This document shows positions 8,650 to 33,958 of a stretch of DNA of 64,000 bases, in pieces. The stretch's first letter is position 1; every line of letters begins with the position of its first letter. The stretch is from IMG/VR virus record IMGVR_UViG_3300025669_000021, positions 1-64,000 of that record; one strand, written 5' to 3'. The translations under genes and the position numbers were made by a program. Below the pieces are notes generated by a model, which was not told where the DNA came from, searched no databases, and saw only the letters and a list, made by a program, of their open reading frames with translations. This stretch comes from a virus.

Positions 8650-8903
8650 TGTCATGGCAATGGAATGGGGCATACTGTGGAGAATGTTATTTCCTGAGCA
8701 TTATGCGTAACAAGTGCATGCACTATTCTCAATGTGGTCAAAAGAATGGTGTGATGGATTCGGCATGCATAAAGTTCCGAGAAGAGGAAACAGATCCATT
8801 GAAGTTGGCGATCCTGTCGGCAGAACGAAATCGGAGAATACGAAATGAAGAAATTGACACCAGAGTTGAAAATCAAAAAGGCCTTGATCGCATTAATGCG
8901 TGA
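8649..8903 (+). CDS. Cys-rich small protein, copy 2 of 3 (Z2)
   Basis: An 84-residue paralogue of the proteins at 7399 and 10338: NGAYCGECYFL, two mid Cys, SACIKF, then TDPLKLAILSAERNRR. The start ATG overlaps the preceding stop as TGATG, exactly as for copies 1 and 3. Its 3' end overlaps the start of the VWA gene by 59 bases, so the last 20 residues share DNA with the VWA N-terminus. Probable zinc-binding fold; no enzyme motif. Confidence 0.75.
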   Translation: MSWQWNGAYCGECYFLSIMRNKCMHYSQCGQKNGVMDSACIKFREEETDPLKLAILSAERNRRIRNEEIDTRVENQKGLDRINA

Positions 8904-10338: not shown

Positions 10339-10808
10339 TGCCATCGATACGAAGGAAATATGGATTTTCTGATGAGGAATACAAGGCGGCTCAGAAGTCC
10401 ATTGTACGGTATTGGGGGCAAGGCGGGATTGGGCAGATCGATTATGCCCATCCCGCTAAACCTGGGAGTGGTCCGAAGGGTGCCTTCTGCAAAGAATGTA
10501 AACACAGGAGACACCGAAATGGAGAAAAGGTCTATAAGAAATGCCAGTTATTGATGATGGCCATCGCGAATAATCGGGAGAACCAAATCAAGATATTGAG
10601 GAAGGGAGATCAAGCGTGCGAACTCTTCCAAGATTGGGGAACCGACCCATTGAAGTTGGCGATCAAATCGGCGGAGAGAGCAAGGAGGAATGAGAAGGAG
10701 AAGGAGAAGGAAGATGCCGCCACCCAGAGGAAGTTGGGGAACATCAACGATCTGTCATGGGATTGCTCCCGCCAGCCGAATGATCGGAAACACAAAAGGC
10801 TGATCTAG
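10338..10808 (+). CDS. Cys-rich small protein, copy 3 of 3 (Z3), N-terminally extended
   Basis: A 156-residue paralogue of the proteins at 7399 and 8649 with about 40 extra N-terminal residues and a long charged helix at the end. The shared core is KGAFCKECKHRR, a mid Cys, QACELF and TDPLKLAIKSAERARR. The ATG at 10338 overlaps the VWA stop (TGATG). The tail (KEKEKEDA) is probably coiled coil. The conservation of the DPLKLA...SAER block across three copies suggests a common binding partner. Confidence 0.75.
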   Translation: MPSIRRKYGFSDEEYKAAQKSIVRYWGQGGIGQIDYAHPAKPGSGPKGAFCKECKHRRHRNGEKVYKKCQLLMMAIANNRENQIKILRKGDQACELFQDWGTDPLKLAIKSAERARRNEKEKEKEDAATQRKLGNINDLSWDCSRQPNDRKHKRLI

Positions 10809-11938: not shown

Positions 11939-12113
11939 AGTGAAGCGAACAGTGTCAGTGATGGAGAGGCTGAATTGTACCATCAGGCCGGAAGCCAGGA
12001 AGATGGCAATCGAGATAGCAAAGGCGAAGCACGAAGGGAACATCAGCGAAGCCATTGAAGAGATGATCCGAGACAAGCACAAGAAACTCAAGAAGGAGAA
12101 GGTGAAGAGATGA
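11931..12113 (+). CDS. Ribbon-helix-helix-like small DNA-binding protein
   Basis: A 60-residue protein with a CopG/Arc-like pattern: a strand (RLNCTIRP), a first helix (EARKMAIEIAKAKHEG), the N-I-S-E-A turn and a second helix (IEEMIRDKHKKL), then a basic tail. GTG 11931 is taken as the start; ATG 11961 is possible. Stop overlaps the next gene (ATGA). Likely a local transcription regulator; target unknown. Confidence 0.6.
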   Translation: MDEVKRTVSVMERLNCTIRPEARKMAIEIAKAKHEGNISEAIEEMIRDKHKKLKKEKVKR

Positions 12114-13018
12114 CCAGCGAAAACGAAACGAAAGAAGTCACCAAGACAGATAGTGGCACATCGCAGATCGTAATGATGGAGGAGCAGCTTTTACAGAGGA
12201 TCGAAGCTGTCGATCGCATGACGAAACTGATCAACACAAGAACAGACCCCAGGACAGATCTAAACATTGTGCAAGGTCAGCCATGCAGGAATGGGAATCT
12301 GGCAAAGAAGCTATATCGAATGTTCGGCGGGACATTTGCTTACATCAAAGACAATGAAGGCATCCCCATCGTGAGGCGAATTGATCAGGAAGATGGTCAT
12401 GGGAAATATTATTACTACGAAGCCTATGGTCGGTACACGCCTCCATTTGGCTATGGTGATGCAGTCGAGGCATCGGGGATGTTCTCTTCCAGAGATTCTT
12501 TCTTTGGCAAGGATCAAGATGGGTGGAAGCCATTGGATGAAGTGAATGAACAGGATGTCAGGCAAGCTGCTCAGACAGAGTGTTTCAAGAAATGCGTATT
12601 CACAGCCTGTGGCCTTGGTCGTCTAACCTTAGAGGAGTGTGAAGAGGCCGGGATGGATATGACCAAGTGCGAAGGATATCAGGGAAGGTCAAATGCCGGG
12701 AGCAAGGGCGGAAGCACGGACACGGAAGAGGATGGAGATGTGAGGGCAGAGATTGAGAAGATGTGCCGAGAGATGTTTGCCAATGGATTGAAGCATCCAG
12801 AGACAGGCAAGCCATTCAACTCTATCGATGATCTGTTGAAGGTGATCACGACGACAGAGACATGGAGGGGATGGGATAGCATCGCCCGGATCTCTGCAAA
12901 GGGATTGGGAATCACGTTGAAGGGAGTGCTCGCGGTTTATACCGAATGGCAGAAGAGTGCAGGGATCGATGATGACAATGTTCCTCTCGGTGAAGGGCCA
13001 GAAGGAGATGGCAAATGA
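12110..13018 (+). CDS. Possible single-strand annealing recombinase
   Basis: A 302-residue protein not recognised with certainty. The core (residues 45-185) has GGTFAYIKDNEG, YYYYEAYGRYTPPFG and DVRQAAQTECFKKCVFTACGLG; a strand-rich domain followed by a helix of the AxxxxxFKxxxxxxGLG kind is typical of ERF/Sak/Rad52-type annealing proteins. Residues 195-210 are a Gly/Ser/Asp linker, the usual spacer before a C-terminal domain. It is translationally coupled (ATGA) to an exonuclease, the classic annealing protein-exonuclease pair. The functional call is inference from this pairing. Confidence 0.45.
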   Translation: MTSENETKEVTKTDSGTSQIVMMEEQLLQRIEAVDRMTKLINTRTDPRTDLNIVQGQPCRNGNLAKKLYRMFGGTFAYIKDNEGIPIVRRIDQEDGHGKYYYYEAYGRYTPPFGYGDAVEASGMFSSRDSFFGKDQDGWKPLDEVNEQDVRQAAQTECFKKCVFTACGLGRLTLEECEEAGMDMTKCEGYQGRSNAGSKGGSTDTEEDGDVRAEIEKMCREMFANGLKHPETGKPFNSIDDLLKVITTTETWRGWDSIARISAKGLGITLKGVLAVYTEWQKSAGIDDDNVPLGEGPEGDGK

Positions 13019-16456: not shown

Positions 16457-16490
16457 TCGGATTGGTTCCGACAGATAAGGGGGTGAATCA

Positions 16491-16754
16491 GTGAACATCA
16501 AGCAACTGATTGTAGGAGAGATAGAACGACAAGGCATGGATGGTTTGTATTGTTCAGAGGGGCCATGTGGATGCCTAAAGGAAGATTTAGCACCTTGTGG
16601 GACAGAAGATTATTACGGCTGTTCCATTGGTAAGCGGATGGAATGGGCGGCAGACGAAAGCTGTGGTTGTGGCGCTTCGGGCATTGATCACTGGCATATC
16701 TGCGACCCCAATTACCCCAAACCGACAGATAAGGGGGTGAATACTCATGGCTAA
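16491..16754 (+). CDS. Cys-rich small protein
   Basis: An 87-residue protein with eight or more Cys (GLYCSEGPCGCLKEDLAPCG, then CSIGKR, SCGCGA, HICDP). This GLY.....CGC...DLAPC pattern occurs in small phage proteins of unknown role and probably binds zinc. GTG 16491 directly follows the first linker. The C-terminal PKPTDKGVNTHG is encoded by the second linker, and the gene overlaps the next start by eight bases. Confidence 0.65.
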   Translation: MNIKQLIVGEIERQGMDGLYCSEGPCGCLKEDLAPCGTEDYYGCSIGKRMEWAADESCGCGASGIDHWHICDPNYPKPTDKGVNTHG

Positions 16755-17091
16755 AGCGGAGACATATAGCCCTTGTTGGGGATGTGAAAAATCAACCACT
16801 TCTTGCTGCTGTCCAGATCTTAAACAGTGGGTTGAGAAGAGAGACAATGAGGATGGACAAATGAAGTACGAATGGAAGCAACTCAGTCAATGGGATTGCC
16901 CAAAGCCAGAATATTACGTCGAGAGCAGGGAAGTCTCTACTGGGATGAGCAAGGCAACTTGTGTATTCCTGTTGGTCGAGTGCGTAGACCAAGGAAGGGG
17001 ATATATTAGAACCATCCCAATCACCAAGGCAGATGTGACAGGGAAGATGATTGATATTGCAAATACCGCAAACCGACAACAGGAGGGGTGA
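16747..17091 (+). CDS. Small hypothetical protein, Cys-rich N-terminus
   Basis: A 114-residue protein. The N-terminus has CWGCEK and SCCCPD, a possible zinc site; the rest looks like a strand-rich domain (KATCVFLLVECVDQG, YIRTIPIT). ATG 16747 follows linker 2; the gene ends inside linker 3, read in a different frame from the other copies. Unknown function. Confidence 0.65.
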   Translation: MAKAETYSPCWGCEKSTTSCCCPDLKQWVEKRDNEDGQMKYEWKQLSQWDCPKPEYYVESREVSTGMSKATCVFLLVECVDQGRGYIRTIPITKADVTGKMIDIANTANRQQEG

Positions 17092-17295
17092 ATGATGTAC
17101 GATGATATATGCCGCAAGAAGGGGTGTGATCACTACATAGAGTGGGACTACTCCTTAGACTCGGAGACTCAGCCGTACCCCTGTGTGTCATGCAATCTCG
17201 TAGGCCAGTCACACCATATAGATATCATTCCTGATGCGTGTCCATTTATGGATGCGATCCGAGCGGTAACGACAGTAAACGCACTGAATAAATAG
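17092..17295 (+). CDS. Small Cys-containing protein
   Basis: A 67-residue protein with CRKKGCDH, CVSCNL and ACPF, a likely small zinc-binding fold. ATG codons lie at 17092 and 17095; both are well placed after the AGGAGGGG of linker 3. The tail VTTVNALNK is encoded by linker 4. Function unknown. Confidence 0.6.
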   Translation: MMYDDICRKKGCDHYIEWDYSLDSETQPYPCVSCNLVGQSHHIDIIPDACPFMDAIRAVTTVNALNK

Positions 17296-17307
17296 AGGAG
17301 TTGAATA

Positions 17308-17538
17308 ATGGGATACGATGACAACCCAAGGATGGTAAGAGTTGATTTCTTCAAACCGTCAGGCAAGTGGTATAGCACGGAGGCCATAAAATGGCTTTCG
17401 TATGACGAGACTCAGATACACGATGCTTTCAGGGAAGCACTAAGGGCCGAACTTGGCGGGAGGTTGAGCGAGATGACGGCTGTATGCCTTCATCCATACC
17501 ATGTCAACGAACATCCGCTGATGATAAAAGAGTGGTAA
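17308..17538 (+). CDS. Small hypothetical protein
   Basis: A 76-residue protein of unknown function with two or three strands (MVRVDFFKPSGKWYST) and a helix (DAFREALRAELGGRLS). GAGGAGTTGAATA of linker 4 precedes ATG 17308. The stop falls at the upstream edge of linker 5. Confidence 0.6.
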   Translation: MGYDDNPRMVRVDFFKPSGKWYSTEAIKWLSYDETQIHDAFREALRAELGGRLSEMTAVCLHPYHVNEHPLMIKEW

Positions 17539-17560
17539 CGACAGGAGAGGGGGTGAATAA

Positions 17561-17728
17561 GTGAAGGTGAGATGCCCAAACGATGATGTATGCGGTGATG
17601 GTAAGGCGGGGGGATTCCATTGTGAACCACACGAACACACTGAGGAGTGCGATGTGAGCCATGGCGAGTTCGGGTTTTGCCCTCCTTGTGTAGTGATTCA
17701 GCCCAAACCGACAATAGGAGGTAAATAG
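17561..17728 (+). CDS. 55-residue Cys-rich protein
   Basis: A 55-residue protein (GTG 17561, MKVRCPNDDVCGDG...) with six Cys and several His (HCEPHEHTEEC, CPPC), probably a zinc ribbon. It begins directly after linker 5 (GGAGAGGGGGTGAATAA) and its last eight residues, PKPTIGGK, are encoded by linker 6. The clean fit between two linkers supports a real cassette despite the small size. Confidence 0.6.
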   Translation: MKVRCPNDDVCGDGKAGGFHCEPHEHTEECDVSHGEFGFCPPCVVIQPKPTIGGK

Positions 17729-18478
17729 ATGAAAGCAATAACGGTAGCATGGTTTAGCGGAGGAACATCATCGGCAATCTCGACGAAGATGATGATTGAC
17801 GAAATAGACCATATCATATTTCAAGACATAGAAGATCACCACGAAGATACCATGCGCTTTGTGATGGACTGCCAAAAATGGTTTGGTAAGGAAATCGAGA
17901 TTCAGAAGTCACCTTACGGAAGCGTTAATAACGCCTGTAAAGGTGCCGCATTTGTGCGTGGCCCACACGGTGCGGCTTGCACTCGATTGTTAAAGATACG
18001 AGAACGCCAAATATGGGAAGCCCAAAACAGATTCTTTTGCAACTTTCGCTATATTTGGGGAATGGATGCGAATGAAACTACAAGAGCTGACAGAATTAGA
18101 TATGAGTCTATGCCAGATGAAGAACATATATTCCCCTTGCTGGAGAATGGTATCGACAAACCGGAAGCCCATGCGATTTTAGCCAGGGCAGGGATAAAGC
18201 GACACGCTATGTATGATATGGGATACCCAAACGCAAATTGTAGGGTATGCACAAAGGGCGGGATGGGATACATGAATAAATGCCGTGTAGATTTCCCTGA
18301 TTGGTTCTGGGCAAGGGCAAGAATGGAGAGAGAGGTCGGAGCGTCTTGCATCAACGGGGTATTCCTCGACGAGCTTGATCCCGATCGGGGCCGTGACTGC
18401 GAGATCATACTGCCAGAATGTGGAATGATGTGCGAGATCCTAGATTCACCCGCTAGTCCGACATTAGGAGGTAAATGA
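17729..18478 (+). CDS. Second PAPS reductase-family PP-loop protein
   Basis: A 249-residue PP-loop enzyme distinct from that at 15041. WFSGGTSSAIS near residue 8 is the phosphate-binding loop; CTRLLKIRER near 84, WGMDANETTRADR near 110, FPLLENGIDKPEAHAILA near 135 and ANCRVCTKGG near 167 follow the phage PAPS-reductase/PP-loop pattern. The substrate is unknown. AGGAGGTAAATAG of linker 6 precedes the ATG, and the C-terminal DSPASPTLGGK is encoded by linker 7. Confidence 0.75.
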   Translation: MKAITVAWFSGGTSSAISTKMMIDEIDHIIFQDIEDHHEDTMRFVMDCQKWFGKEIEIQKSPYGSVNNACKGAAFVRGPHGAACTRLLKIRERQIWEAQNRFFCNFRYIWGMDANETTRADRIRYESMPDEEHIFPLLENGIDKPEAHAILARAGIKRHAMYDMGYPNANCRVCTKGGMGYMNKCRVDFPDWFWARARMEREVGASCINGVFLDELDPDRGRDCEIILPECGMMCEILDSPASPTLGGK

Positions 18479-18479
18479 T
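18443..18479 (+). repeat. Extended linker copy (7 of 10)
   Basis: Full-length copy: GATTCACCCGCTAGTCCGAC followed by ATTAGGAGGTAAATGAT and the ATG at 18480. The first half encodes the DSPASPT tail of the upstream PP-loop enzyme, and the second supplies the ribosome site of the next gene. Confidence 0.85.
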
Positions 18480-18755
18480 ATGTCTTCAACAGACAAAATC
18501 AAAAAGCATCTTTTCGATATGACTGCGGAGGAATTAACAGAGTCCTTCAACCAGTACCTTAAAGAAATTGAAGACGCTTACGGTGACATACCGAAGGATA
18601 AAGATTGTGCCAAATGCCCACATTCAACTAACGGTCAGTGTTCGGGAATGGTGACGCCGTGTTTTGATATTTGTTCTGGCGATGCGTTTGGTGGAATGTG
18701 TGCTAGTGATTCACCCGCTAGTCCGACAGTAAAGAGTGAATCGAGGGAATTATGA
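18480..18755 (+). CDS. Small Cys-rich hypothetical protein
   Basis: A 91-residue protein: a helical acidic N-terminus (residues 5-38), then KDCAKCPHS, GQCSG, TPCFDIC and GMCAS, a likely zinc-binding part. The tail DSPASPTVKSESREL is read from linker 8. The gene overlaps the next by four bases (ATGA). Unknown function. Confidence 0.6.
   Translation: MSSTDKIKKHLFDMTAEELTESFNQYLKEIEDAYGDIPKDKDCAKCPHSTNGQCSGMVTPCFDICSGDAFGGMCASDSPASPTVKSESREL
18708..18751 (+). repeat. Extended linker copy (8 of 10)
   Basis: Same first half as copies 7 and 9 (GATTCACCCGCTAGTCCGAC), then a diverged AGTAAAGAGTGAATCGAGGG before ATG 18752. The upstream protein reads through it in the same frame as in copies 7, 9 and 10. 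Confidence 0.85.
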
Positions 18756-19069
18756 AATTAGTCAGCATTGAGAGTCCGTATGCGGGGAATGTGGAAGAGA
18801 ACGAGAAGTACGCCAGAGAGTGCATGAGGGATAGCCTGTTACGCGGTGAGGCACCATACGCCAGTCATTTGATATACACTCAGCGGGGAATCTTAGACGA
18901 TACCAAGCCGGATGAGCGCAAGCTAGGTATGGAAGCTGGCAAAAAGTGGGAGATCCACGCAGAGCTTACTGCGGTTTATACCGATCTTGGAATATCAGGC
19001 GGCATGGAGTGGGGCGTCGATCAGGCTAGATCCGTAGGGCGGCCAGTTGAGTACAGGAGTATTCGATGA
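18752..19069 (+). CDS. DUF7768-like (nucleoside deoxyribosyltransferase-fold) protein
   Basis: A 105-residue protein matching a widespread phage family: IESPYAGNVEEN, YARECMRDSLLRGEAPYASH, YTQRGILDD, then ERKLGMEAGKKW, VYTDLGISGGM and a closing VEYRSIR. The fold is that of nucleoside 2-deoxyribosyltransferase-like proteins (DUF7768/DUF4406 group); substrate unknown. It overlaps the following methylase by four bases (ATGA), the only junction in this zone without a linker, so these two may travel as one cassette. Confidence 0.7.
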   Translation: MKLVSIESPYAGNVEENEKYARECMRDSLLRGEAPYASHLIYTQRGILDDTKPDERKLGMEAGKKWEIHAELTAVYTDLGISGGMEWGVDQARSVGRPVEYRSIR

Positions 19070-19746
19070 AACCATATTATGAAGCGGCGGGGATTACGAT
19101 TTACCACGGGGACTGTCGGGAAGTATTGCCGACTCTTGACAAGGTTGATCTTGTTTTGACTGATCCGCCGTATGGGATTGGGAAGTCGGGGCAAAAGCGT
19201 TCTAGATGCAAGAACCCAAAACATGACCGCAAGCACTATGACGACTTGGGGTGGGATAAGGAAATACCACCGCTAATGTGTTTCGATTTGATGAGACTAA
19301 AATCAGACCACCAGATTATATGGGGCGGCAATTATTTCGCCCACTATCTGCAGCCTTCCATGGGGTGGCTGTTCTGGGACAAAGGACAAGACCTTAACCA
19401 GGCAGACGGAGAGCTTGCATGGACGAGCTTTGACAAGGCACTACGGCGCAAGGTTCTCAACAGTTCGGCCATTGCCTCCGACGGGGCGGTGCATCCTACA
19501 CAGAAACCCTTGGCAATAATCAAGTGGTCTATTGAATACGCCGAGGGCCACATGAAGTACCCCCTCTCAATCCTCGACCCCTTCATGGGCAGCGGCACAA
19601 CACTCAGAGCCGCCAAGGATCTGAACCGCCAAGCCATAGGCATTGAGCTTGAAGAGAAGTATTGTGAGATAGCGGCCAACCGTTTGAGTCAGGATGTTCT
19701 AGGACTATTCGATTCACCCGCTAGTCCGACATTAAGGAGTAAATGA
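19066..19746 (+). CDS. DNA methyltransferase (DPPY, amino-methylating)
   Basis: A 226-residue S-adenosylmethionine-dependent DNA methylase of the amino-group type. The catalytic TDPPYG box is near residue 31 and the SAM-binding DPFMGSGTT near 171, followed by IGIELEEKYCEIAANRL; catalytic before SAM motif is the beta-class order. It makes N6-methyladenine or N4-methylcytosine; the target site cannot be read from sequence. No partner restriction enzyme is nearby, so it is an orphan, likely protecting phage DNA. The tail DSPASPTLRSK is encoded by linker 9. Confidence 0.85.
   Translation: MKPYYEAAGITIYHGDCREVLPTLDKVDLVLTDPPYGIGKSGQKRSRCKNPKHDRKHYDDLGWDKEIPPLMCFDLMRLKSDHQIIWGGNYFAHYLQPSMGWLFWDKGQDLNQADGELAWTSFDKALRRKVLNSSAIASDGAVHPTQKPLAIIKWSIEYAEGHMKYPLSILDPFMGSGTTLRAAKDLNRQAIGIELEEKYCEIAANRLSQDVLGLFDSPASPTLRSK
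19711..19742 (+). repeat. Extended linker copy (9 of 10)
   Basis: GATTCACCCGCTAGTCCGAC then ATTAAGGAGTAA before the ATG at 19743. It differs from copy 7 in only a few bases around the ribosome site. It encodes the end of the methylase. Confidence 0.85.
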
Positions 19747-19997
19747 TGGCAAGCAATAAGCACATAGAACTGGTAGAAGCAGTCAATAATTCCAAGACGA
19801 TTGAGGAGCATAAGAAAGCTAAAATATACTTGCAAGGCTTTCGGGCAGGAGTAAGTAATTGCGACTACTACCTAGACCTGTGTGGATGTGATATGTACTA
19901 CATCGACAAAGGCATAGACCGACCGATGTGCGGCGGAGTGTGGCTAGATTGGAAGCCAAGTGATTCACCCTCCACTACGACAGTAGGAGGTAAATAG
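19743..19997 (+). CDS. Small hypothetical protein
   Basis: An 84-residue protein. A helical first half (NKHIELVEAVNNSKTIEEHK) is followed by an aromatic/Cys part (NCDYYLDLCGCDMYYIDKG). ATG 19743 or 19746. The tail DSPSTTTVGGK is read from linker 10. Unknown function. Confidence 0.6.
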   Translation: MMASNKHIELVEAVNNSKTIEEHKKAKIYLQGFRAGVSNCDYYLDLCGCDMYYIDKGIDRPMCGGVWLDWKPSDSPSTTTVGGK

Positions 19998-20001
19998 ACA
20001 G
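19962..20001 (+). repeat. Diverged linker copy (10 of 10)
   Basis: GATTCACCCTCCACTACGAC then AGTAGGAGGTAAATAGACAG before ATG 20002. It differs from copies 7-9 at several positions in the first half but keeps the coding frame and the AGGAGG site. It places the O-antigen ligase-like gene in the same array. Confidence 0.75.
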
Positions 20002-21717
20002 ATGAAAGACAGAATGACCAAAATGCTATTCTTGACCACCCTTTTTGTGGTCCCGTCCGTGTTCTCTTCTCAGACTGGAGACATCGGGCTACTGCCGCAA
20101 CTGATGATGTTGTGTATGTGCAGCCTATTCCTTCTGTTCTTTTTGGACTTGAAGGGGCGTAAGAGGAGCCTATCCGCGGTTCTCCTGATATTCTTGGCCT
20201 TCCTGGCGGTGAACATCATATCCGTCAAGAACGCGATCAACGGCCAGGAGTGGCTGTTCTCTATCGCTCGGCTATCGATACTGGCAACCTTCTTCTTCAT
20301 CACCCACTCTATTGTTACCAGAAGAGCAGGACTTAGGTTTGATATTGCCGGGGCGATTGCTCTGTGTGCCGGGGTCCATGCCATAATAGGCATACTTCAA
20401 TACTACGGAGTCAAGATCCCCTTCATTCCTGTTGCTACTGCCGGCAGTGTCTCGACCATGGCAAACAAGAACCTATTTGCCTCGTTCCTGTTCCTCTGCA
20501 GCCCCTTTGTCCTATACCGGTGCATCGTGGCCTGGAGAAGTAAAATACTGCTCTTTGGTGGAATACTGGTGTTGTGTGGACTGGCTATCTTTGTGTCTCA
20601 GTGCAAAGCCGTATGGCTGGGCATGGCAGTCGGTTCCATTGCCGTGCTGATCACCCTTCTTTTCAACCGTAGATGGAAAGCGGCTACGCTCCTGGCGATG
20701 GTAGGGGTGGTCGGCTTGCTGTGCGTCTTCTTCCTATTCAAGGACATCGTTATCAATCAACTCTCCATCGTCAATTTGCATTGGTCTATCAAGCCTCGGC
20801 TGGCTATTTGGTCACAGACAATAGAACTGATATCGGATCATCCAGTTTTCGGGACCGGATCGGGCAACTGGAAGATAGCCTTTCCTGGTTACGGTTGGGA
20901 TGCTGCAGGAATGACGCATTGCATACGGCCCCACAATGATTTCCTTTGGGTCATGGCAGAGACGGGTATCGTCGGGCTTCTGTTGTACGCCTCTCTATTC
21001 TTGGTGTCCATCCGTCAGGCGGTGAAGCAAGCCAAGGATTGTCTGTTTGGTCGGGAATGTTGGAGCTATTGCCTGATCTATGGCCTTGTAGGGTTCATGG
21101 TTGTGTCTTTCTTCGACTTCCCATACGAGCGGATCCCTCACATGATGTTGTTCATCGTGATTCTAGCGTCTTCAATGTATCCCTTCTCTAACTATGCGGA
21201 TTTCAGTAAGAGGGAACATGAGGGCAAGACCTACTCTATTCCTGGCGCTTCTCTCACGGTAAGCATCATCGGAATGATCATCTGTCTTTGCGGCGGTCTT
21301 CTTATCTCGCGCATGGAGTCTGAGATTGCAGCCATGGATGGTGTTAGACTGTTCCAGCGGGGCAAGTTCGATGAATCAAAGGCGTGTATGCTCAGGGCCC
21401 GTACCCCGTTCTACACTATTGACCCATACACGGCGCCAGTTGATTGGCACCTTGGGAATATTGCTGTGGTAGAGGGTGACAACGAGGCGGCTTTCTACCT
21501 CTACCAGGAGGCGGCTTTCTATCACCCCTCCCATATCCATGTTCTATCTAACCTCGGGGCAATGTACTATCGTTTTGGGTTCCTAGATGCAGCTTTGGAG
21601 ACAACAGAAAGGGCGCTCCAACTCGCACCCGAGTTTGAAGCACCCCTTCTCAACCTGCCAATTATCAAGAAAGCTCTACAGAGCCAAGCCCAGGAAGATC
21701 ATCCCGCCCAGGACTAG
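20002..21717 (+). CDS. O-antigen ligase/polymerase-like membrane protein with TPR tail
   Basis: A 571-residue inner-membrane protein with about ten to twelve hydrophobic helices through residue 440, then a soluble tail (445-565) with TPR-like helix pairs (HLGNIAVVEGDNEAAFYLYQ, then NLGAMYYRFGFLDAALET). The periplasmic-loop motif RPHNDFLWVMAETG near residue 309 is the Wzy_C signature. Cellular homologues join or polymerise O-antigen units. In a phage this suggests alteration of host surface polysaccharide (receptor masking). It is introduced by linker 10 and followed by convergent genes. Exact reaction (ligase or polymerase) is undecided. Confidence 0.8.
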   Translation: MKDRMTKMLFLTTLFVVPSVFSSQTGDIGLLPQLMMLCMCSLFLLFFLDLKGRKRSLSAVLLIFLAFLAVNIISVKNAINGQEWLFSIARLSILATFFFITHSIVTRRAGLRFDIAGAIALCAGVHAIIGILQYYGVKIPFIPVATAGSVSTMANKNLFASFLFLCSPFVLYRCIVAWRSKILLFGGILVLCGLAIFVSQCKAVWLGMAVGSIAVLITLLFNRRWKAATLLAMVGVVGLLCVFFLFKDIVINQLSIVNLHWSIKPRLAIWSQTIELISDHPVFGTGSGNWKIAFPGYGWDAAGMTHCIRPHNDFLWVMAETGIVGLLLYASLFLVSIRQAVKQAKDCLFGRECWSYCLIYGLVGFMVVSFFDFPYERIPHMMLFIVILASSMYPFSNYADFSKREHEGKTYSIPGASLTVSIIGMIICLCGGLLISRMESEIAAMDGVRLFQRGKFDESKACMLRARTPFYTIDPYTAPVDWHLGNIAVVEGDNEAAFYLYQEAAFYHPSHIHVLSNLGAMYYRFGFLDAALETTERALQLAPEFEAPLLNLPIIKKALQSQAQEDHPAQD

Positions 21718-25829: not shown

Positions 25830-26326
25830 GCAGAAACCCAGCAATAGAGCCCGTTGGCCCGTCAATGGTCATCTCCGGTGACAACTCCGGTCCTGTCTGG
25901 CCTCTTGGTAGGCCTGTCTCTTGGGTATCGTCGGGTGGTATCGGGAAAGCTGCAAGATCGGAAAAGGTAGAGCATGGCATACTCCTCGCAATAGACAAAG
26001 ATGCTGACTTCTATTTAGAGCGGCCAGACGGATCTGTTGCGCTTGTCGGTTGTACTTCCTGCCGATTCACGGACAGCGACCAGCCGCCCTCGGTAGAGAA
26101 TGGACAAGGTTGCCACAACTGTCTGGCCTCAAAATGCCCCAAGACCACATACTCCGAAGTCTGCGACAAATGGGAGCCAGAGCCCGAAGCCTCCAGCCGA
26201 CAATGTGATGAGTGCTGGAAGGACGGTAAGCGCGTCTGCCCTCATAAAGATCCGACCCACGCCACAGACGAGAACGACAACACAGAGGCGTACAACTGCA
26301 CCGATTTCGGGGAGTGCCCATTCTAA
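25826..26326 (+). CDS. Cys-rich hypothetical protein
   Basis: A 166-residue protein. Residues 1-70 are Gly/Pro-rich; from 75 on there are ten Cys in pairs (CTSCRF, CHNCLASKCP, CDECWKDGKRVCPH, ending CTDFGECPF), indicating two zinc-binding units. Coupled on both sides (ATGA and TAATG). Unknown function. Confidence 0.6.
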   Translation: MSRNPAIEPVGPSMVISGDNSGPVWPLGRPVSWVSSGGIGKAARSEKVEHGILLAIDKDADFYLERPDGSVALVGCTSCRFTDSDQPPSVENGQGCHNCLASKCPKTTYSEVCDKWEPEPEASSRQCDECWKDGKRVCPHKDPTHATDENDNTEAYNCTDFGECPF

Positions 26327-26499
26327 TGCAAGACCACGAAACAAGGAAACGGCTGCGAGCCATCCGAGACGAGTTGACTTCCATCCGCTTTGCCGTGTGG
26401 GTTGTCGCTGTCTACGCCATATCTGAGATCATGGCTATCGTGTTCCCTGCTATAGCACAAGGGCTCTTTCACCTAGTCAACTTCGTGGTGCCTCTATGA
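26326..26499 (+). CDS. Small single-pass membrane protein
   Basis: A 57-residue protein: a basic helix (HETRKRLRAIRDEL) followed by a hydrophobic segment of about 30 residues (AVWVVAVYAISEIMAIVF...). ATG 26326 overlaps the preceding stop (TAATG). Could be holin-like or an envelope-targeted protein; context does not decide. Confidence 0.5.
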   Translation: MQDHETRKRLRAIRDELTSIRFAVWVVAVYAISEIMAIVFPAIAQGLFHLVNFVVPL

Positions 26500-26624
26500 C
26501 ATATCCCCCAGAATCCACCAGTCTACCCCTGTACAATCACAAGCGCCTTCTCATTCAAACCCCGTGTAGGCCCTCTCAGGACGTTTACGCTAATAAAACA
26601 AGCACAGTTACAACCAACTGCAGC

Positions 26625-26657
26625 AAATAATGCAACATCAGGGGAATATAGGGGCTC
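26625..26657 (+). promoter_or_regulatory. Promoter-like duplicated element, copy 2
   Basis: AAATAATGCAACATCAGGGG then AATATAGGGGCTC, 40 bases before the small terminase gene at 26698. It differs from copy 1 by two substitutions in the first 20 bases and one inserted base. The other 165 bases of this gap show nothing further. Confidence 0.5.
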
Positions 26658-26697
26658 CGGGGTATATCACTAAGAGAATAGGGAGATATTAGGATTC

Positions 26698-27336
26698 ATG
26701 GCTAAATCAGACAACAATCTACCTGCTAATACCGATAGCAACTCCCAAGACTCCAACAACTCCAGTCTCACAGAAAAAAACACCCCTGCCTTCGACATCA
26801 ACCTGCTTGTTAAAAAGACTCATAAACCCCTTGCTACCAGATTAAAGAGGTATTTGACTCACGCCACGCCTCGCGTACGCGCCCGAACAGCACACTTCCT
26901 ATGGCTGACTGCACAGGGCATGACATTCAAGAAAGCGGCTGCAGAGGCCGAGATCGGTTGGGCACAGCTCCAGTCATTAAAGGCACATAATCCAGGCTTT
27001 TGGGAGATTTACGAGGTATCGCGCGAATGTATGAGGGCAGTGCAGCTTCATGAGATGGAAGACGCCTTGCATGAGAGAGGCACAGTGGGCTGGGAGGAGA
27101 AGATCTATCGCAATGGCGTCTTCGCCGGGGTAATCCGCAGATACTCGGACAAATGCCTAGAGCTCTCTCTAAAGGCTAACGATCCCAAGTACAAGGACAA
27201 GGCAGACATCAAGATCAATGTCGGAGCCAAGATCAGCTTCACCTCGATAGGCGTCGATCACTCCGCACAACAGACAATCAACGTCGAAGCCGAGGAAACT
27301 GGGTCAAATACGGGTCAAGATGATGAAGAAGAGTAA
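26698..27336 (+). CDS. Terminase small subunit (second packaging module)
   Basis: A 212-residue protein. Residues 1-45 are a disordered Asn/Ser tail; 55-115 form a helix-turn-helix (TAQGMTFKKAAAEAEIGWAQ); then the small-terminase pattern ALHERGTVGWEEKIYRNG followed by IRRYSDKCLELSLKANDPKY. It would bind the pac/cos region and recruit the large subunit at 35016, although that gene is 8 kb away with many small genes between. Unrelated to the Nu1-like protein at 103. Confidence 0.7.
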   Translation: MAKSDNNLPANTDSNSQDSNNSSLTEKNTPAFDINLLVKKTHKPLATRLKRYLTHATPRVRARTAHFLWLTAQGMTFKKAAAEAEIGWAQLQSLKAHNPGFWEIYEVSRECMRAVQLHEMEDALHERGTVGWEEKIYRNGVFAGVIRRYSDKCLELSLKANDPKYKDKADIKINVGAKISFTSIGVDHSAQQTINVEAEETGSNTGQDDEEE

Positions 27337-28099
27337 AACACTAAGGAATAGCAGCACGGTGCATGGATTAGGAATCCGTGTACCATCATCTAAAGGAGAG
27401 ACAGGGGGAGAGCACGGCGAGATCAAAGGAGCCAGATTACTAGAGGCACTAAAACGAGCAGCGGCAAAAACAAAACACAATACGAAGGGGGGGGCGGGAC
27501 CATTCGCGCTTCGACCCCCACCCGCTAATAATATCTCCCCTTTACACGCGCGGTTTCCTGATAATTTATTTCCCAAGCTGGGGTACAGTATTTTTTCTAA
27601 GTTGACAGAAATTGGCACGGAAGATGAGGGGGATAGGAAGGATAAGGTTCGGATAGGCAAGGTTCCAAAAATTTCGATCAGAGAGTCTGTTGCGGCGCCG
27701 GGGTCAGAGTTTTGTGGAGAGAGTACCTTTGAGTCGGTAATGCGTCTGTCTGCAGAAAGAGAGGAGTCTGAAAAAATTCGACCAGCGGATAGTCTTGGGG
27801 GGGTGGGCCGCTTGAGGGACATTCTCTGTGATATGGAAGTACCGGCGTCTGATGCCTTGCAGGACGAATTATGTGCGCTTGAGCAGAAATTGGCTGATTC
27901 CGTGGACGGTTGCTGCCCGAAGTGCGGTTCTCAGTGGATGTACGATATTTTGCGGAAGAGTCCCTGCCCGTGCCGCGTGTGTTCTGATTGTAGCTACATG
28001 GAGCGATACGCCTTCTGGATGTACGGAGTTGATTTTCACAGCAAGTGGGTGGAGTATGTTCCCGAGAGCCCCGCGTTGGCCGGCATGGACTGGCGATAG
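27320..28099 (+). CDS. Hypothetical protein with C-terminal zinc ribbon
   Basis: A 259-residue protein. The first 150 residues are low-complexity and partly basic; an eight-G run lies at about 27487. Residues 190-235 carry CCPKCGSQWMY and CPCRVCSDCSY, a clear zinc ribbon. The ATG overlaps the small terminase end by 17 bases. The next frame begins with another CDSC just after the stop, so a frameshift joining the two cannot be excluded. The first half may be mis-started. Confidence 0.5.
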   Translation: MMKKSKTLRNSSTVHGLGIRVPSSKGETGGEHGEIKGARLLEALKRAAAKTKHNTKGGAGPFALRPPPANNISPLHARFPDNLFPKLGYSIFSKLTEIGTEDEGDRKDKVRIGKVPKISIRESVAAPGSEFCGESTFESVMRLSAEREESEKIRPADSLGGVGRLRDILCDMEVPASDALQDELCALEQKLADSVDGCCPKCGSQWMYDILRKSPCPCRVCSDCSYMERYAFWMYGVDFHSKWVEYVPESPALAGMDWR

Positions 28100-29934
28100 G
28101 AGAACCTTGCGATTCGTGCGATATGCACTATTTCAATCCTGGGAACGTGAAGGAGCGTAGGGATATTTTCGGAAGGGGTATGTCTGCGGGGATGAGGGAT
28201 TTGTTGCCTGGGATGGGGCGCTTGGATAGTTACGAGCTATATCAGTCGGATATGCGGTCAAAGATGCAGTATGAGCCCGTGACGTACCCGAGCGCGGATC
28301 TGAGTGGAGTGATTCCTGAGAGTGATCGGACAATACTGTATCCTGGCCTTCCTGGGCACGATTGCGGGAAATTGTTCGGTATCAGTCAGACGTATGGGTA
28401 TATACCAACGAGTGAGCGGCATAGAGAAGAACTGTTGAAAAATGGGGGTTATGAGATGAAGTTGCATTTGAATGGTCACGAAGAAGCGCTAATGGCCTTT
28501 ATGAAATTGGAACCTACCGGCGAATTCCGCAACCCGAAGCGTGGGGAGCCGTTTTTCCATGAGAAGACTAGGCTTATCGTGTCATCCTTGGAGGATACTT
28601 ACATTCCTCGGTTCATTCTGAGGCGCGTGGAAGAGAAAGAGACATTCAACTGCTCAACCTGCGCGAATGCGGCCCTGGACCGGTATTACTGCATGACGAA
28701 GGAGATACCCTACGAGCGTGGCGCTACTTCCGAGTCGATGAATTGCAGGAAATACCGGCATTTTCGGACCAATGAGATGCAGTTCCCAGCGGAAGCGGAG
28801 CCCGTTCCTGATGTTGTGGAGATCACCTGCAGCGAATACAGCGTTCAGAATCGCGGAGAAAAGGTTTTGTTTTGCCATCCTACCCATAGGCAATATCTTC
28901 ACAAGGGGTTGTTAAGTTTCAGTGACGGCAGGAAGGATCGGTCTTGGGGCGAAGCTCGGACTTTAGATGTAATAGACGATGAAGATGAAGCTACCATGCG
29001 AAAAGTGTTAGAAAGCCTGGAGGGTGGCGTTGTCGTAAACGATCTCCGGACAGCGAAAGAGCCAGAGAAAGGTATGTGGGTTCCAGCGATCGGAGAGCGG
29101 TTCCGGATTATACCAGGAATAGGTACAGGAAACATCTATCGGCGTATTGAGCCTAAACACTGGGAAGAGGTTGAAGGTATGCTCCTGGCTTCCTGCGATG
29201 GAACTAAGGTAAACTTCTCTTTTGACCGTAGAGGGATGCTTGACCAGTTTGAGGAGGTTGTCGACGCTCCAGATGCCGGTGAGAAACTTGATTGCGGTCC
29301 CGGCAAAGATATATTCGTAGACAAGACTCCTGCGGCCTGTATTGGTGATGACGGCGTATTGCGCTGCCATAAACAATCCGAGGAGATCAAGCGACTGAGG
29401 GACGATAATCACCACCTTCTCACCAAGGGCCAGGAGCTACACGATAAGAACGTGATGCTGGATTCGAACAACAGGAAGATGTCCGAACTGTTGGCTATCC
29501 CAGTAGACACGACAGACTGCTTGAACTGCAGCCAGTCAAAGGAAGTGCGGCGGTTGGCTGACGAGAATGTAGCTCTGAAAAAGGTAATGGAAGATACTAG
29601 GCTCAAGTGTCTGGCCTGTGGTTTGTCCCATGGTTGCACTGTCAGTAGTCTCCAGAGAGAGTTGACCAAAGCTGTCGAAGAGGGCCGCAAGGACTACGAT
29701 GGTATGCGAGATATGCAGCGCAAGTTCATCAAGGCCGACCATGAACTACGGGAGTTGAAGGAGTCCCTAGCCGGTAATAGTGAAGATGATGTGTGCGGCC
29801 GTTATGGGTGCAAAGGGGTTATGGCTTACCCTTCTCCGCGTAATTGCACTTGTCATACTGGAAATGCTCCTTGCGGGGCGTGTACTGAGGTAGTGCTGAC
29901 GTGTTCTGAGTGCGGTTTTGAGGTTAATACATGA
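28045..29934 (+). CDS. Large Cys-rich coiled-coil protein, function unknown
   Basis: A 629-residue protein with several Cys pairs: PCDSCD near residue 22, CSTCAN, CMTKEI, CLNCSQ near 490, CLACGLSHGC near 525, and a C-terminal CGRYGC...CGAC...CSECG zinc region. Residues 450-580 alternate Leu heptads and charges, a coiled coil. GTG 28045 is the first start but lacks a ribosome site; ATG 28123 would lose the first CxxC. Not recognised. Ends in an ATGA overlap. Confidence 0.6.
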   Translation: MGGVCSREPRVGRHGLAIGEPCDSCDMHYFNPGNVKERRDIFGRGMSAGMRDLLPGMGRLDSYELYQSDMRSKMQYEPVTYPSADLSGVIPESDRTILYPGLPGHDCGKLFGISQTYGYIPTSERHREELLKNGGYEMKLHLNGHEEALMAFMKLEPTGEFRNPKRGEPFFHEKTRLIVSSLEDTYIPRFILRRVEEKETFNCSTCANAALDRYYCMTKEIPYERGATSESMNCRKYRHFRTNEMQFPAEAEPVPDVVEITCSEYSVQNRGEKVLFCHPTHRQYLHKGLLSFSDGRKDRSWGEARTLDVIDDEDEATMRKVLESLEGGVVVNDLRTAKEPEKGMWVPAIGERFRIIPGIGTGNIYRRIEPKHWEEVEGMLLASCDGTKVNFSFDRRGMLDQFEEVVDAPDAGEKLDCGPGKDIFVDKTPAACIGDDGVLRCHKQSEEIKRLRDDNHHLLTKGQELHDKNVMLDSNNRKMSELLAIPVDTTDCLNCSQSKEVRRLADENVALKKVMEDTRLKCLACGLSHGCTVSSLQRELTKAVEEGRKDYDGMRDMQRKFIKADHELRELKESLAGNSEDDVCGRYGCKGVMAYPSPRNCTCHTGNAPCGACTEVVLTCSECGFEVNT

Positions 29935-30200
29935 GGCGAAAACACCAGTTTAACGGGGCGTGGCCTATCGGGCACTGCCTCCATTGTCACCAAGTCACGG
30001 GACTGGATACGTGGCAGATCAAGGAGATGCACCCTTCTATGGCCGAGTGTCATGCTTCTACAGCCCCCAGGATGGGTTTCTGGGAGTATCTAACTGCCCG
30101 GGTGAACTGTCTATCGCAATATGCTGGAGAAGAACCTGACAATACAACTGAGAGTGCTCCTGTGTGCGCTCCGTGGGTGAGAGATGGGTTTTTATGCTAG
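29931..30200 (+). CDS. Small Cys/His protein
   Basis: An 89-residue protein with GHCLHCHQVTG near residue 14 and further Cys/His (AECHAS), a possible zinc site. The start overlaps the preceding stop (ATGA). Function unknown. Confidence 0.55.
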   Translation: MRRKHQFNGAWPIGHCLHCHQVTGLDTWQIKEMHPSMAECHASTAPRMGFWEYLTARVNCLSQYAGEEPDNTTESAPVCAPWVRDGFLC

Positions 30201-30382
30201 AATGTAACCTATGCGGTGACAACTACGATGAAGACATTGAGCCCGGGAGCAAGCTTGAGGGTGTCCAGATGAATGATGTAGGAGATATATCGACGGTGGA
30301 TGCCCACCTATGCCGAATTTGTACCGGACTGATTGTCTGCCAGATGGTATCAACGCCCAGTGACGGAAAGGTTATACTGTAA
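30194..30382 (+). CDS. Small zinc-ribbon protein
   Basis: A 62-residue protein, MLECNLCGDNYDED..., with CNLC and CRIC about 35 residues apart, the layout of a simple zinc ribbon. ATG 30194 overlaps the previous gene by seven bases; the longer frame is a shadow. Stop overlaps the next start (TAATG). Confidence 0.6.
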   Translation: MLECNLCGDNYDEDIEPGSKLEGVQMNDVGDISTVDAHLCRICTGLIVCQMVSTPSDGKVIL

Positions 30383-30561
30383 TGCCGGCGATTCCGCGAA
30401 CAATTCAGGATGTCGACAAGGATATCAAGAATCGCAGTGACCGGCTTGAACGATGCCGGCACGGGGATCAAGCGAATGGTCTACGTAAAGAGATCGACCG
30501 TTTTCTTGATGAAAGGTTAGAATTGATGAGGAGGAACACTGATGTCGTTGCCGCCAGATGA
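30382..30561 (+). CDS. 59-residue helical protein
   Basis: A short charged helical protein (MPAIPRTIQDVDKDIKNRSD..., RKEIDRFLDERLELMRR). It fills the gap between two genes exactly: TAATG at its start and a 20-base overlap with the next gene, whose ribosome site GAGGAGG lies inside it. Predicted coiled coil; unknown function. Confidence 0.55.
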   Translation: MPAIPRTIQDVDKDIKNRSDRLERCRHGDQANGLRKEIDRFLDERLELMRRNTDVVAAR

Positions 30562-30886
30562 TAATGAATATACCAAGCACGTTCCTAACAACAGCGACAA
30601 GGGCCAGAAGTATCTATCTCTTATGATCAAGATTCAGGCTTTCTTACATGAGAATGGCTGTGACGCCAATAATGCCCTAGACATCTTCGCTACGCTGTTC
30701 GCCAATGTGGGATGCAAGCATAATGCCGACAAAGAACGGTTGAAGGCTGTAATGCTCGACACCATTGATGGGGTCTACAAGACCCAGGGGAGGATAAGAC
30801 CGCAATCCAATGCTGACGTTATCCCTCAAACTCTCGAGGACATTATGAATTCAGACACCTATCTAGGGGAAACATCAGATGGATAG
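30542..30886 (+). CDS. Small hypothetical protein
   Basis: A 114-residue helical protein (KYLSLMIKIQAFLHENGCDA, then ALDIFATLFANVGC) after a strong GAGGAGG site. Overlaps the following gene by eight bases. No motif recognised. Confidence 0.65.
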   Translation: MSLPPDDNEYTKHVPNNSDKGQKYLSLMIKIQAFLHENGCDANNALDIFATLFANVGCKHNADKERLKAVMLDTIDGVYKTQGRIRPQSNADVIPQTLEDIMNSDTYLGETSDG

Positions 30887-31196
30887 TAAACTACTCACCA
30901 CCATCATCTACGGCAAGATGACAACAGTACCAGGGCTTAACCCCATGCTCTCACTTGTGATGGACTCCTTTGAGCATATCGACAAGCTGGGGTGCAAACT
31001 ACGGGCCCCAGGCGGCGAAACACTGGTATGCGACAATGAGATCATCCTACATGGTCTTGAGAAGGTGCCGCATAATGACTATAATCGTATTGCCGATATC
31101 GTCTGGACGCAAATATCGATGAGAATAGATATCACCAAGATCAAGGTCTTTGGCGGTTGTGTTGTGGAAGATAAGTTCATATTTGGAGTGCTATGA
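30879..31196 (+). CDS. Small hypothetical protein
   Basis: A 105-residue protein with mixed alpha-beta character (LLTTIIYGKMTTVPGLN, GETLVCDNEIILHG, KIKVFGGCVVEDKFIFG). Overlaps both neighbours by a few bases. Function unknown. Confidence 0.6.
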   Translation: MDSKLLTTIIYGKMTTVPGLNPMLSLVMDSFEHIDKLGCKLRAPGGETLVCDNEIILHGLEKVPHNDYNRIADIVWTQISMRIDITKIKVFGGCVVEDKFIFGVL

Positions 31197-31411
31197 GTGT
31201 ACGTTGCCCAAAGAAGAAGTGTCAGACGCCAAGAGAATATCTTCACCATAAGTTTTGCCCGTGGTGTGGAACACCGTATGAGGATACGTTCTTGAAGCAT
31301 GGCGGCTTTCACTGGTTAAGGCGTAGATTGTCATGGCGTAGACGCGCATTAGGGCTCCATGCCAGACTTGAACAGTACGAAATAGAGATTCGCCGTTTGA
31401 AAAAGGGATAA
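31193..31411 (+). CDS. Small zinc-ribbon protein with basic helix
   Basis: A 72-residue protein. CPKKKC near residue 5 and FCPWCG near 22 form a zinc ribbon; the second half is an Arg-rich helix (WLRRRLSWRRRALGLHARLE). The combination suggests nucleic-acid binding. Start overlaps the previous stop (ATGA). Confidence 0.65.
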   Translation: MSVRCPKKKCQTPREYLHHKFCPWCGTPYEDTFLKHGGFHWLRRRLSWRRRALGLHARLEQYEIEIRRLKKG

Positions 31412-31413
31412 TT

Positions 31414-31998
31414 ATGCTGATATTCGAGATGTCGACAATGGAACCGGGATTAGTAATCTCTGTTCGTTCATTTGGTGTTGGTGGTAGGACCATACGCGGG
31501 ACACTTGGCTCTTTCACCAACCATAACGCTTTGTCAGTATTCGACCACCCTTCCGAGCGGTTCAAGATCGCGGAAGCTGTTATGCCAGTGTCTAAGCTGA
31601 CCGAGCTTGCCGAGTACGAGCACAAGATGAATCTCCCCAAGACCCATAGGGATTACATCATCGTCCGGATCTGGCGCGTGAAGGGATTGACCACTGCAGA
31701 GAAGTTTGCCATCTCCGAGTATGCTCGGTGCAAGCTGATGGGGATACCGTACCCGATCAACAGCGTATTGCGAATGTGGGTGTTTAGGTTCGTGAATTCC
31801 CTCCCCTGGGAGATTGAGGGGAAATGGTGTTCCCAGTTGGACGCTGACGCAATCCAGCACGTTAAGCCCAACGCTCTTCTGGATCCCAGGGGAAAGATCA
31901 AGAAGAACTTCACTCCCCGGACTTTTGAGAACAGGCTAGTGTCTGGAGCGATCGAGGACGCAACGGACGAAATCATAGTAAATGTGGACCGAATATAG
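31414..31998 (+). CDS. Possible YiiX/NlpC-P60-like papain-fold protein
   Basis: A 194-residue protein with the order of a permuted papain-like hydrolase: PGLVISVRSFG, GSFTNHNALSVF (His near residue 37), an IAEAVMP strand with Glu, and later GKWCSQLDADAIQ (Cys near 138) with a downstream PNALLDP. In YiiX/NlpC-P60 relatives these His and Cys are catalytic and act on amide or peptide bonds. It could be a lysis or entry enzyme, or a processing hydrolase; the family call is tentative. Confidence 0.45.
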   Translation: MLIFEMSTMEPGLVISVRSFGVGGRTIRGTLGSFTNHNALSVFDHPSERFKIAEAVMPVSKLTELAEYEHKMNLPKTHRDYIIVRIWRVKGLTTAEKFAISEYARCKLMGIPYPINSVLRMWVFRFVNSLPWEIEGKWCSQLDADAIQHVKPNALLDPRGKIKKNFTPRTFENRLVSGAIEDATDEIIVNVDRI

Positions 31999-32008
31999 GA
32001 GAAACCAG

Positions 32009-32296
32009 ATGCCATACGAGACGATCAGCAAGCCAAAGAAAAAGAAGAAGCCGGCGCCGAGGATGAATGTCCGGGCGGTCGGGAATGTTGGAGACGGAAG
32101 CCCGGGCGGTATGGAGATAGACCCGCGATCAGGGGTATCTGGCAACTCCAAGAGCCGAAATCTGTATCCTGGGGCCCAAGGGACCGACTTCTGCATGAGG
32201 AAGAATCCGGACAAGAAAAGGAAGTTTAAAGGCTGTGCCCATCCCCGCAGATGCAAGAAGTGTCTAAACTACAGCGAATTTGAGGAGAAGAAGTGA
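32009..32296 (+). CDS. Small basic Cys protein
   Basis: A 95-residue protein with a Lys-rich N-terminus (KPKKKKKPAPR) and a C-terminal CxnC cluster (TDFCMRKN, KGCAHPRRCKKCLN), likely zinc-binding. ATG 32009 follows AGGAGAAACC and is preferred to the longer frame. Stop overlaps the next gene. Confidence 0.6.
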   Translation: MPYETISKPKKKKKPAPRMNVRAVGNVGDGSPGGMEIDPRSGVSGNSKSRNLYPGAQGTDFCMRKNPDKKRKFKGCAHPRRCKKCLNYSEFEEKK

Positions 32297-33311: not shown

Positions 33312-33320
33312 GGAGGCATC

Positions 33321-33557: not shown

Positions 33558-33594
33558 TAGGCAACAATCTGGCCGCTGGTGGGCAAAGGCGAAT

Positions 33595-33726: not shown

Positions 33727-33735
33727 AGGAGAACG

Positions 33736-33930: not shown

Positions 33931-33958
33931 AGGCCAATAGGCCAGAAAGGTAGCAAGC

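What the first reader, a model, noticed from the sequence alone, without database searches (positions are those of the whole stretch)
16466..20001. Array of small genes joined by a repeated linker that supplies both a C-terminal tail and the next ribosome site
Ten junctions within 3.5 kb share a related sequence with CGACA and an AGGAGG-like site next to the start codon; the first two are identical over 21 bases, and three others share a perfect 20-base half (GATTCACCCGCTAGTCCGAC). Four upstream proteins end DSPASPTLGGK, DSPASPTVKS..., DSPASPTLRSK, DSPSTTTVGGK in the same frame, so unrelated proteins (PP-loop enzyme, methylase, unknowns) carry one tail. This looks like a cassette-exchange system in a phage, comparable in idea to boundary sequences of lambdoid phages, but with coding use of the junction. 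Linkers are one-sided (before starts) and not attC-like.
Basis: partly seen in the sequence, partly recalled or inferred. Interest (0 to 1): 0.85.

Follow-up and report, generated by a model that had tools for sequence, protein, structure and literature searches.

The report
Repeated gene-joint sequence in a phage
In one uncultured phage, nearly every small gene in a row is joined to the next by copies of one short DNA joint that ends the gene before it (often adding the same short protein tail) and carries the ribosome site of the gene after it, apparently because genes were spliced together at that joint; this resembles start-associated and boundary sequences known from a few other phages.

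Summary
Ten of eleven consecutive genes at 16,491-20,002 are preceded by copies of one linker, [ATTCA-CCC..]-CCGACA-[extended Shine-Dalgarno]-start. At least five more copies lie elsewhere in the same 101-kb viral record (66374, 76127, 76514, 76936, 99158). All are on one strand and all sit before starts.

The genes between the linkers are not paralogues; only their tails match. Where homologues exist, the tail begins at the natural C-terminus. This holds for the DNA methylase (82 homologous ORFs end a median of 2 residues from that point) and for the one PAPS-reductase homologue found. Left and right halves of the linker are reassorted around CCGACA, and 9 of 14 copies carry stops in all three frames (5.6% of other starts do).

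I read it as a start-associated / boundary sequence at which cassettes were joined by short-homology recombination, with the shared tails as read-through by-products. Precedents are Cluster K mycobacteriophage SAS and the Island3 gene 67/68 shared 3' end. No other genome with the linker was found, only 100%-identical fragments of this virus, so exchange between phages is not shown and the tail's function is unknown. New variant of a known kind.

The parts
16460..16490 (+). linker 1: GATTGGTT|CCGACA|GATAAGGGGGTGAATCA before GTG 16491; lies after the upstream gene's stop
   Evidence: 39 nt 92% identical to the copy at 76117-76155
16491..16754 (+). small Cys-rich protein, 87 aa, ends PNYPKPTDKGVNTHG
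   Evidence: no family
16709..16746 (+). linker 2: CAATTACCCCAAA|CCGACA|GATAAGGGGGTGAATACTC before ATG 16747; in frame (KPT)
16747..17091 (+). 114-aa protein, no family
17060..17091 (+). linker 3: CAAATACCGCAAA|CCGACA|ACAGGAGGGGTGAATG before ATG 17092/17095; out of frame with the upstream gene
17092..17295 (+). 67-aa protein, ends RAVTTVNALNK
17261..17307 (+). linker 4, degenerate: GGTA|ACGACA|GTAAACGCACTGAATAAATAG with a later GAGGAG before ATG 17308
   Evidence: family D5
17308..17538 (+). 76-aa protein (weak phrog_19945 match)
17530..17560 (+). linker 5: GAGTGGTA|ACGACA|GGAGAGGGGGTGAATAA before GTG 17561; upstream stop TAA sits at the left edge
   Evidence: families D5, D7
17561..17728 (+). 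55-aa Cys-rich protein, ends IQPKPTIGGK
17693..17728 (+). linker 6: GTGATTCAGCCCAAA|CCGACA|ATAGGAGGTAAATAG before ATG 17729; in frame
17729..18478 (+). PAPS-reductase / PP-loop family protein, ends DSPASPTLGGK; the L028 homologue (43%) ends one residue after query residue 240
18443..18479 (+). linker 7: GATTCACCCGCTAGT|CCGACA|TTAGGAGGTAAATGAT before ATG 18480; in frame
18480..18755 (+). 91-aa Cys-containing protein, ends DSPASPTVKSESREL
18708..18751 (+). linker 8: GATTCACCCGCTAGT|CCGACA|GTAAAGAGTGAAT, SD decayed; the gene at 18752 uses a later GAGGGAATT and an ATGA overlap
18752..19069 (+). DUF7768 (nucleoside deoxyribosyltransferase-like), no tail
19066..19746 (+). DNA methylase (phrog_67), no linker before it, ends DSPASPTLRSK; homologues end where the tail starts
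19711..19742 (+). linker 9: GATTCACCCGCTAGT|CCGACA|TTAAGGAGTAA before ATG 19743/19746; in frame
19743..19997 (+). 84-aa protein, ends DSPSTTTVGGK
19962..20001 (+). linker 10: GATTCACCCTCCACT|ACGACA|GTAGGAGGTAAATAGACAG before ATG 20002; in frame
20002..21717 (+). Wzy_C O-antigen-ligase-like membrane protein with TPR; last gene served by a linker

Best explanation
The linker is a start-associated gene-joint sequence of this phage. Its right half is an extended Shine-Dalgarno (TAAGGAGGTGA-like) that starts the next gene. Its left half plus the right half supplies stop codons for whatever reads in from upstream, often in all three frames. Unrelated small accessory genes were strung together by recombination at this short repeat, probably by phage-type annealing recombination on short homology, so each joint could be re-used and gene starts and gene ends were recombined around CCGACA. 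The shared C-terminal tails arise because the upstream gene lost its own stop at the join and reads into the linker until its first in-frame stop. Shown: the repeat family, its position and strand, unrelated genes between copies, tails added at natural C-termini (two proteins), reassorted halves. Inferred: recombination as the cause, the enzymes, and selection for re-usable joints.
For: 10 of 11 consecutive genes have the linker, with 5 further copies, all + strand and all before starts in accessory regions, none in the structural blocks. All-against-all BLASTP of the array proteins finds no paralogy beyond the tails. 82 methylase-homologue ORFs end a median of 2 residues from the point where the tail begins, and none carries this tail; the PAPS-reductase homologue in L028 ends one residue after query position 240. 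Nearest neighbours of left and right halves disagree, e.g. 16723 (left like 17074, right 16/16 identical to 76127) and 18724 (left identical to 18459 and 19727, right like 76936). 9 of 14 copies carry stops in all three frames within 30 nt, against 16/288 (5.6%) at other starts in the record and 13.6% at strong-SD starts of 80 other viral loci. Sharing of upstream 14-mers: 7/18 genes in the array region against 10/2516 in 93 other viral loci. The record encodes a Cas4/RecE-like exonuclease 2.4 kb upstream and a Holliday-junction resolvase. Phage annealing recombinases are known to make mosaics from diverged homology (PMC3945230, abstract). Direct precedent: Island3 genes 67/68.
Against: No second genome carries the linker, so exchange has not been seen. 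The halves are short, and the right half is under selection as an SD, which can mimic relatedness, although the 16-nt identities include non-SD bases. In-frame reading at 12 of 14 junctions (5 of 7 independent left-half types, p about 0.045) hints that the coding frame may matter more than a by-product should. No annealing protein was identified.
Confidence: 0.6

Rival explanations
1. Regulatory element: the linker is a translational (or DNA) operator bound by a phage or host factor, so that the accessory genes are controlled together; copies are kept by selection for regulation and not for joining genes.
For: One strand, fixed distance to the start (17-29 nt in 13 of 14 copies, about 40 nt in the degenerate one). 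CCGACA is conserved although it is not part of the SD. Restricted to accessory genes, as SAS are, for which a binding site was also proposed.
Against: No inverted repeat within the linker, no consistent fold (z from -1.9 to +2.0), no Rfam match, no promoter excess. Does not explain identical 15-nt left halves inside coding sequence or the discordant halves.
Confidence: 0.2
2. Local copying only: linkers were duplicated within this genome (slippage or gene conversion between junctions) with no gene traffic.
For: The most similar copies are neighbours (18443, 18708, 19711, 19962), and no other genome has the linker.
Against: Genes between copies are unrelated; copies 60 kb apart share up to 39 nt at 92%; tails start at natural C-termini, which needs a join at gene ends.
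Confidence: 0.15
3. Functional C-terminal tag: the DSPASPT.. tail is a selected peptide signal shared by array proteins, and the DNA repeat follows from it.
For: 12 of 14 junctions keep xCG-ACA in frame; tails end in similar GGK/RSK/DKG residues.
Against: The only divergent copy differs at four bases in three codons, all amino-acid-changing (A to S, S to T, P to T), with no synonymous change. Exact nucleotide identity of three copies points to DNA-level descent. Two junctions are out of frame, and DUF7768 has no tail.
Confidence: 0.04
4. Convergence: only strong Shine-Dalgarno sites plus chance.
For: The right half is close to the anti-SD complement UAAGGAGGUGA (established knowledge of 16S rRNA 3' ends).
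Against: Expected number of such matches is 0.10 or less; the left half is not SD and is repeated exactly over 21 nt.
Confidence: 0.01

Closest known systems
Start-Associated Sequences (SAS/ESAS) of Cluster K mycobacteriophages (Pope et al. 2011, PMC3203893; PMC12699233)
   Same: Short asymmetric repeat containing the Shine-Dalgarno, a few bases before starts of unrelated accessory genes, one orientation, 11-19 copies per genome, absent from the structural region; upstream stop codons sometimes lie within it.
   Different: Sequence unrelated (GGGATAGGAGCCC); SAS sit mostly after intergenic gaps of more than 50 bp and are nearly invariant; about half have 17-bp inverted repeats (ESAS), absent here. 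Here the repeat usually lies inside the upstream gene's 3' end, and its halves are mosaic.
Shared 60-bp 3' end of Island3 genes 67/68 (Cluster I mycobacteriophages; PMC3029335)
   Same: Unrelated neighbouring genes share their C-terminal residues through a DNA repeat at the gene end; explained by recombination at short boundary repeats.
   Different: A single pair of copies, 60 bp, seen by comparison with Brujita; here about 15 copies, combined with the next gene's ribosome site, and no sister genome for comparison.
Boundary sequences of lambdoid phages (concept as cited in PMC3029335)
   Same: Short conserved sequences at gene borders proposed to guide module exchange.
   Different: There the same boundary is shared between related phages; not testable here for lack of relatives.
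Mobile regulatory cassettes (promoter-early stem-loops) of T4-type phages (Arbiol et al. 2010, seen only as a reference; details from memory)
   Same: Regulatory intergenic repeat associated with shuffling of small accessory genes.
   Different: Those contain an early promoter and a stem-loop; neither is found in this linker.

Membership tests
Cluster K SAS | 13-bp consensus GGGATAGGAGCCC (up to 2 mismatches) before starts | tested here: not met
   4 matches in the window against 1.8 expected, none at the array; the Adephagia control region gave 15
Cluster K SAS | repeat includes the SD and lies a few bases upstream of start codons | tested here: met
   SD-like core within a few nt of the start in 12 of 14 copies; start 17-29 nt after the first base of CCGACA in 13 of 14
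Cluster K SAS | one orientation, non-structural region only | tested here: met
   all copies +; all at 16-20, 66, 76-77 and 99 kb, none in the structural modules
Cluster K ESAS | paired 17-bp inverted repeats next to the SAS | tested here: not met
   no inverted repeat within or flanking the linkers
Lambdoid-type boundary sequences | same short sequence flanks different modules in related phages | tested here: inconclusive
   different genes within one genome are flanked, but no related phage with the linker was found
Lambdoid-type boundary sequences / Island3 type | unrelated adjacent genes share 3' sequence and C-terminal residues | tested here: met
   four DSPxxxT tails, three with 21 nt identical; proteins otherwise unrelated
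T4-type PeSL cassettes | promoter plus stem-loop in the repeat | tested here: not met
Integron attC cassettes | imperfect inverted-repeat attC sites 3' of each gene with an integron integrase | tested here: not met
   no inverted repeats at the linkers; the only integrase found among the proteins tested is a phage tyrosine integrase far away at 65.3 kb

The most novel reading that the evidence does not exclude
A phage carries a re-usable gene-joint, a combined stop (often in all three frames), ribosome site and start, at which accessory genes are repeatedly inserted or swapped. Any captured open reading frame is terminated and the next one started, so new genes work wherever they land, and captured proteins pick up a standard C-terminal tail.
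Probability: 0.3. Interest if true: 0.7.

Novelty: new variant of a known kind. Interest (0 to 1): 0.48.

Why it matters
How phages gain small accessory genes without breaking their operons is an old question: targeted joining at boundary sequences, or random joining followed by selection. A genome with about 15 copies of one joint, with unrelated genes between them and with halves that have been reassorted, is a clear place to look for targeted joining. The shared tails would be a readable trace of past joins in other phage genomes.

Tried and rejected
Exact 21-mers of both linker types in IMG/VR: none besides this virus. BLASTN of two linkers against phage records and of one against plasmids: only hits with E of 2 or more; a Halalkalicoccus plasmid hit was looked at and set aside. 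Relatives via TerL, the PAPS reductase, phrog_3657 and the methylase: no syntenic relative of the array. RNA element: no Rfam match and no stable fold. Promoters or terminators at linkers: no excess. An annealing recombinase: window 12110-13018 has no homologue; the AlphaFold model of the conserved phrog_3657 protein (pLDDT 82) has no significant PDB match.
Full report
WHAT IS THERE. The window is the first 64 kb of a 101,415-nt IMG/VR virus record. In 16,460-20,001 ten start codons are each preceded by a copy of one linker. The copies can be written as [left half]-CCGACA (or ACGACA)-[right half]-start. The right half is an extended Shine-Dalgarno close to the complement of the 16S anti-SD (TAAGGGGGTGAAT, TTAGGAGGTAAAT, TTAAGGAGTAAAT). 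The left half occurs in a few types: GATTCACCCGCTAGT (three identical copies and one diverged), a ..CCCAAA or CCCAAT type, a ..GGTT type and a ..GGTA type. Exact or near matches far exceed shuffles. Only the methylase gene at 19066 lacks a linker. In the rest of the record there are copies at 76127, 76514 and 76936 (between replication genes and the portal gene), at 99158 (after the tail genes), and at 66374 just after the integrase, whose product ends SPKATGDE with GCG-ACA in the same frame. Two more junctions at 66.6 and 66.8 kb share only the GGAGATGAATGATG part or a close variant of it. All copies are on the + strand and none is in a structural block.

CHANCE AND CONTROLS. Counting genes that share an exact 14-mer with another gene in their 50-nt upstream regions gives 7 of 18 in the array region and 10 of 2516 in 93 other viral loci. 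Those I inspected in the control loci were promoter-like repeats or tandem repeats. The positive control, the right half of Cluster K phage Adephagia, shows 15 SAS.

THE GENES BETWEEN THE LINKERS ARE NOT DUPLICATES. All-against-all BLASTP of the array proteins and of small proteins around the other copies finds only the tails. They include a PAPS-reductase-family PP-loop protein, a DUF7768 protein, a DNA methylase and several small proteins without a family. The last gene is a Wzy_C O-antigen-ligase-like protein.

THE TAIL IS AN ADDITION. 82 methylase-homologue ORFs from IMG/VR end a median of 2 residues from the residue where DSPASPTLRSK begins, and none shows this tail. The one close PAPS-reductase homologue (L028, 43%) ends ..PECGIMCYLAEKE, one residue past our residue 240, where DSPASPTLGGK begins at 239. 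So at least two unrelated enzymes ended naturally at the linker border and now read on into it.

HALVES ARE REASSORTED. Nearest neighbours of the left and right halves disagree for several copies. 16723 has a left half like 17074 but a right half identical over 16 nt to 76127. 17709 is like 76936 on the left and 19978 on the right. 18724 is identical on the left to 18459 and 19727 but like 76936 on the right. This is what recombination at CCGACA would leave. Convergence on a good Shine-Dalgarno explains part of the right-half similarity, not the identities outside it.

STOPS. Nine of 14 copies stop translation in all three frames within 30 nt. 5.6% of other starts in the record do so (tested at two offsets per start), and 13.6% of strong-SD starts in 80 other viral loci (copies are related, so the p-values there are too small). 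A joint with this property makes any upstream reading frame safe. Part of it is built into the extended SD sequence (TAA/TAG...TGA/TAA). In some searches the degenerate copy 4 was entered as 17268; its CGACA begins at 17270. Corrected by hand, its stops still cover three frames and it is in frame (ACG ACA) with the upstream gene.

FRAME. Of 14 junctions with an upstream CDS, 12 have the xCG-ACA codons in frame. Counted by left-half type it is 5 of 7, p about 0.045, which is suggestive only. The diverged coding copy at 19962 differs at four bases in three codons, all changing amino acids. I therefore treat the tail as a by-product (inference).

RELATIVES. None carries the linker. L013 covers 26326-45036. 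L023 starts exactly at the GTG that follows the linker at 76127, and it independently confirms the linkers at 76514 and 76936.

MECHANISM. Most likely the linker is a start-associated joint at which accessory genes were strung together by recombination on short homology; in temperate phages mosaic formation is known to be driven by annealing recombinases tolerant of divergence (PMC3945230, abstract). The record has a Cas4/RecE-like exonuclease at 13015 and a Holliday-junction resolvase at 4556. I could not identify an annealing protein.

PLACE AMONG KNOWN THINGS. By position, strand bias, SD content and restriction to accessory genes it works like the SAS of Cluster K phages, but the sequence is unrelated and there are no ESAS repeats. 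By the shared C-termini of unrelated neighbours it repeats, in about 15 copies, what was described once in Island3. The combination of coding 3' end, stops, ribosome site and mosaic halves in one repeat is the new part. I rate it a new variant of a known kind.

Noticed in passing
window 1-17 and record 101399-101415 (end of L009): The two ends of the 101,415-nt record share an exact 17-nt overlap (GTCTTTCTGTATCGTGT), so the record is probably circular.
   Followed up: partly
window 103-2797 with L008/L009 78.4-93 kb; window 35,016-63,702: The record holds two packaging/structural modules: TerS/TerL (phrog_15) with portal, capsid-protease and tape measure; and TerL (phrog_2, nearest matches in podoviruses such as BcepC6B) with connector, major head protein and a 3564-aa ORF. 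Either a phage within a phage or a joined assembly; the linkers occur only in the parts outside 25-64 kb.
   Followed up: partly
window 20002-21717: O-antigen ligase (Wzy_C) with TPR, last gene of the linker array; possible surface-modifying accessory gene.
   Followed up: no
window 3783-4556: TET-associated glycosyltransferase (TAGT), next to a ParB/methyltransferase-like gene; hints at modified DNA bases.
   Followed up: no
window 8775-8824 and 10626-10675: 50-nt repeat (78%) coding a shared C-terminal DPLKLAI..SAER stretch in two small Cys-containing proteins; another case of a shared protein end.
   Followed up: no
L008 2374-2800 (record 66374-66800): Three successive junctions after the integrase share GGAGATGAATGATG or a close variant, with upstream proteins ending TGDE, LGDE, GEDE: a second small set of repeated junctions.
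   Followed up: partly
L008 4152-5207 (record 68152-69207): Protein of phrog_3657, conserved in many temperate phages, function unknown; AlphaFold model pLDDT 82, no significant PDB match.
   Followed up: partly
L114 8900-9900: An unrelated viral contig carries a dense array of short interspersed repeats (..GTGAACCA..GAAAGAAACCC..).
   Followed up: no
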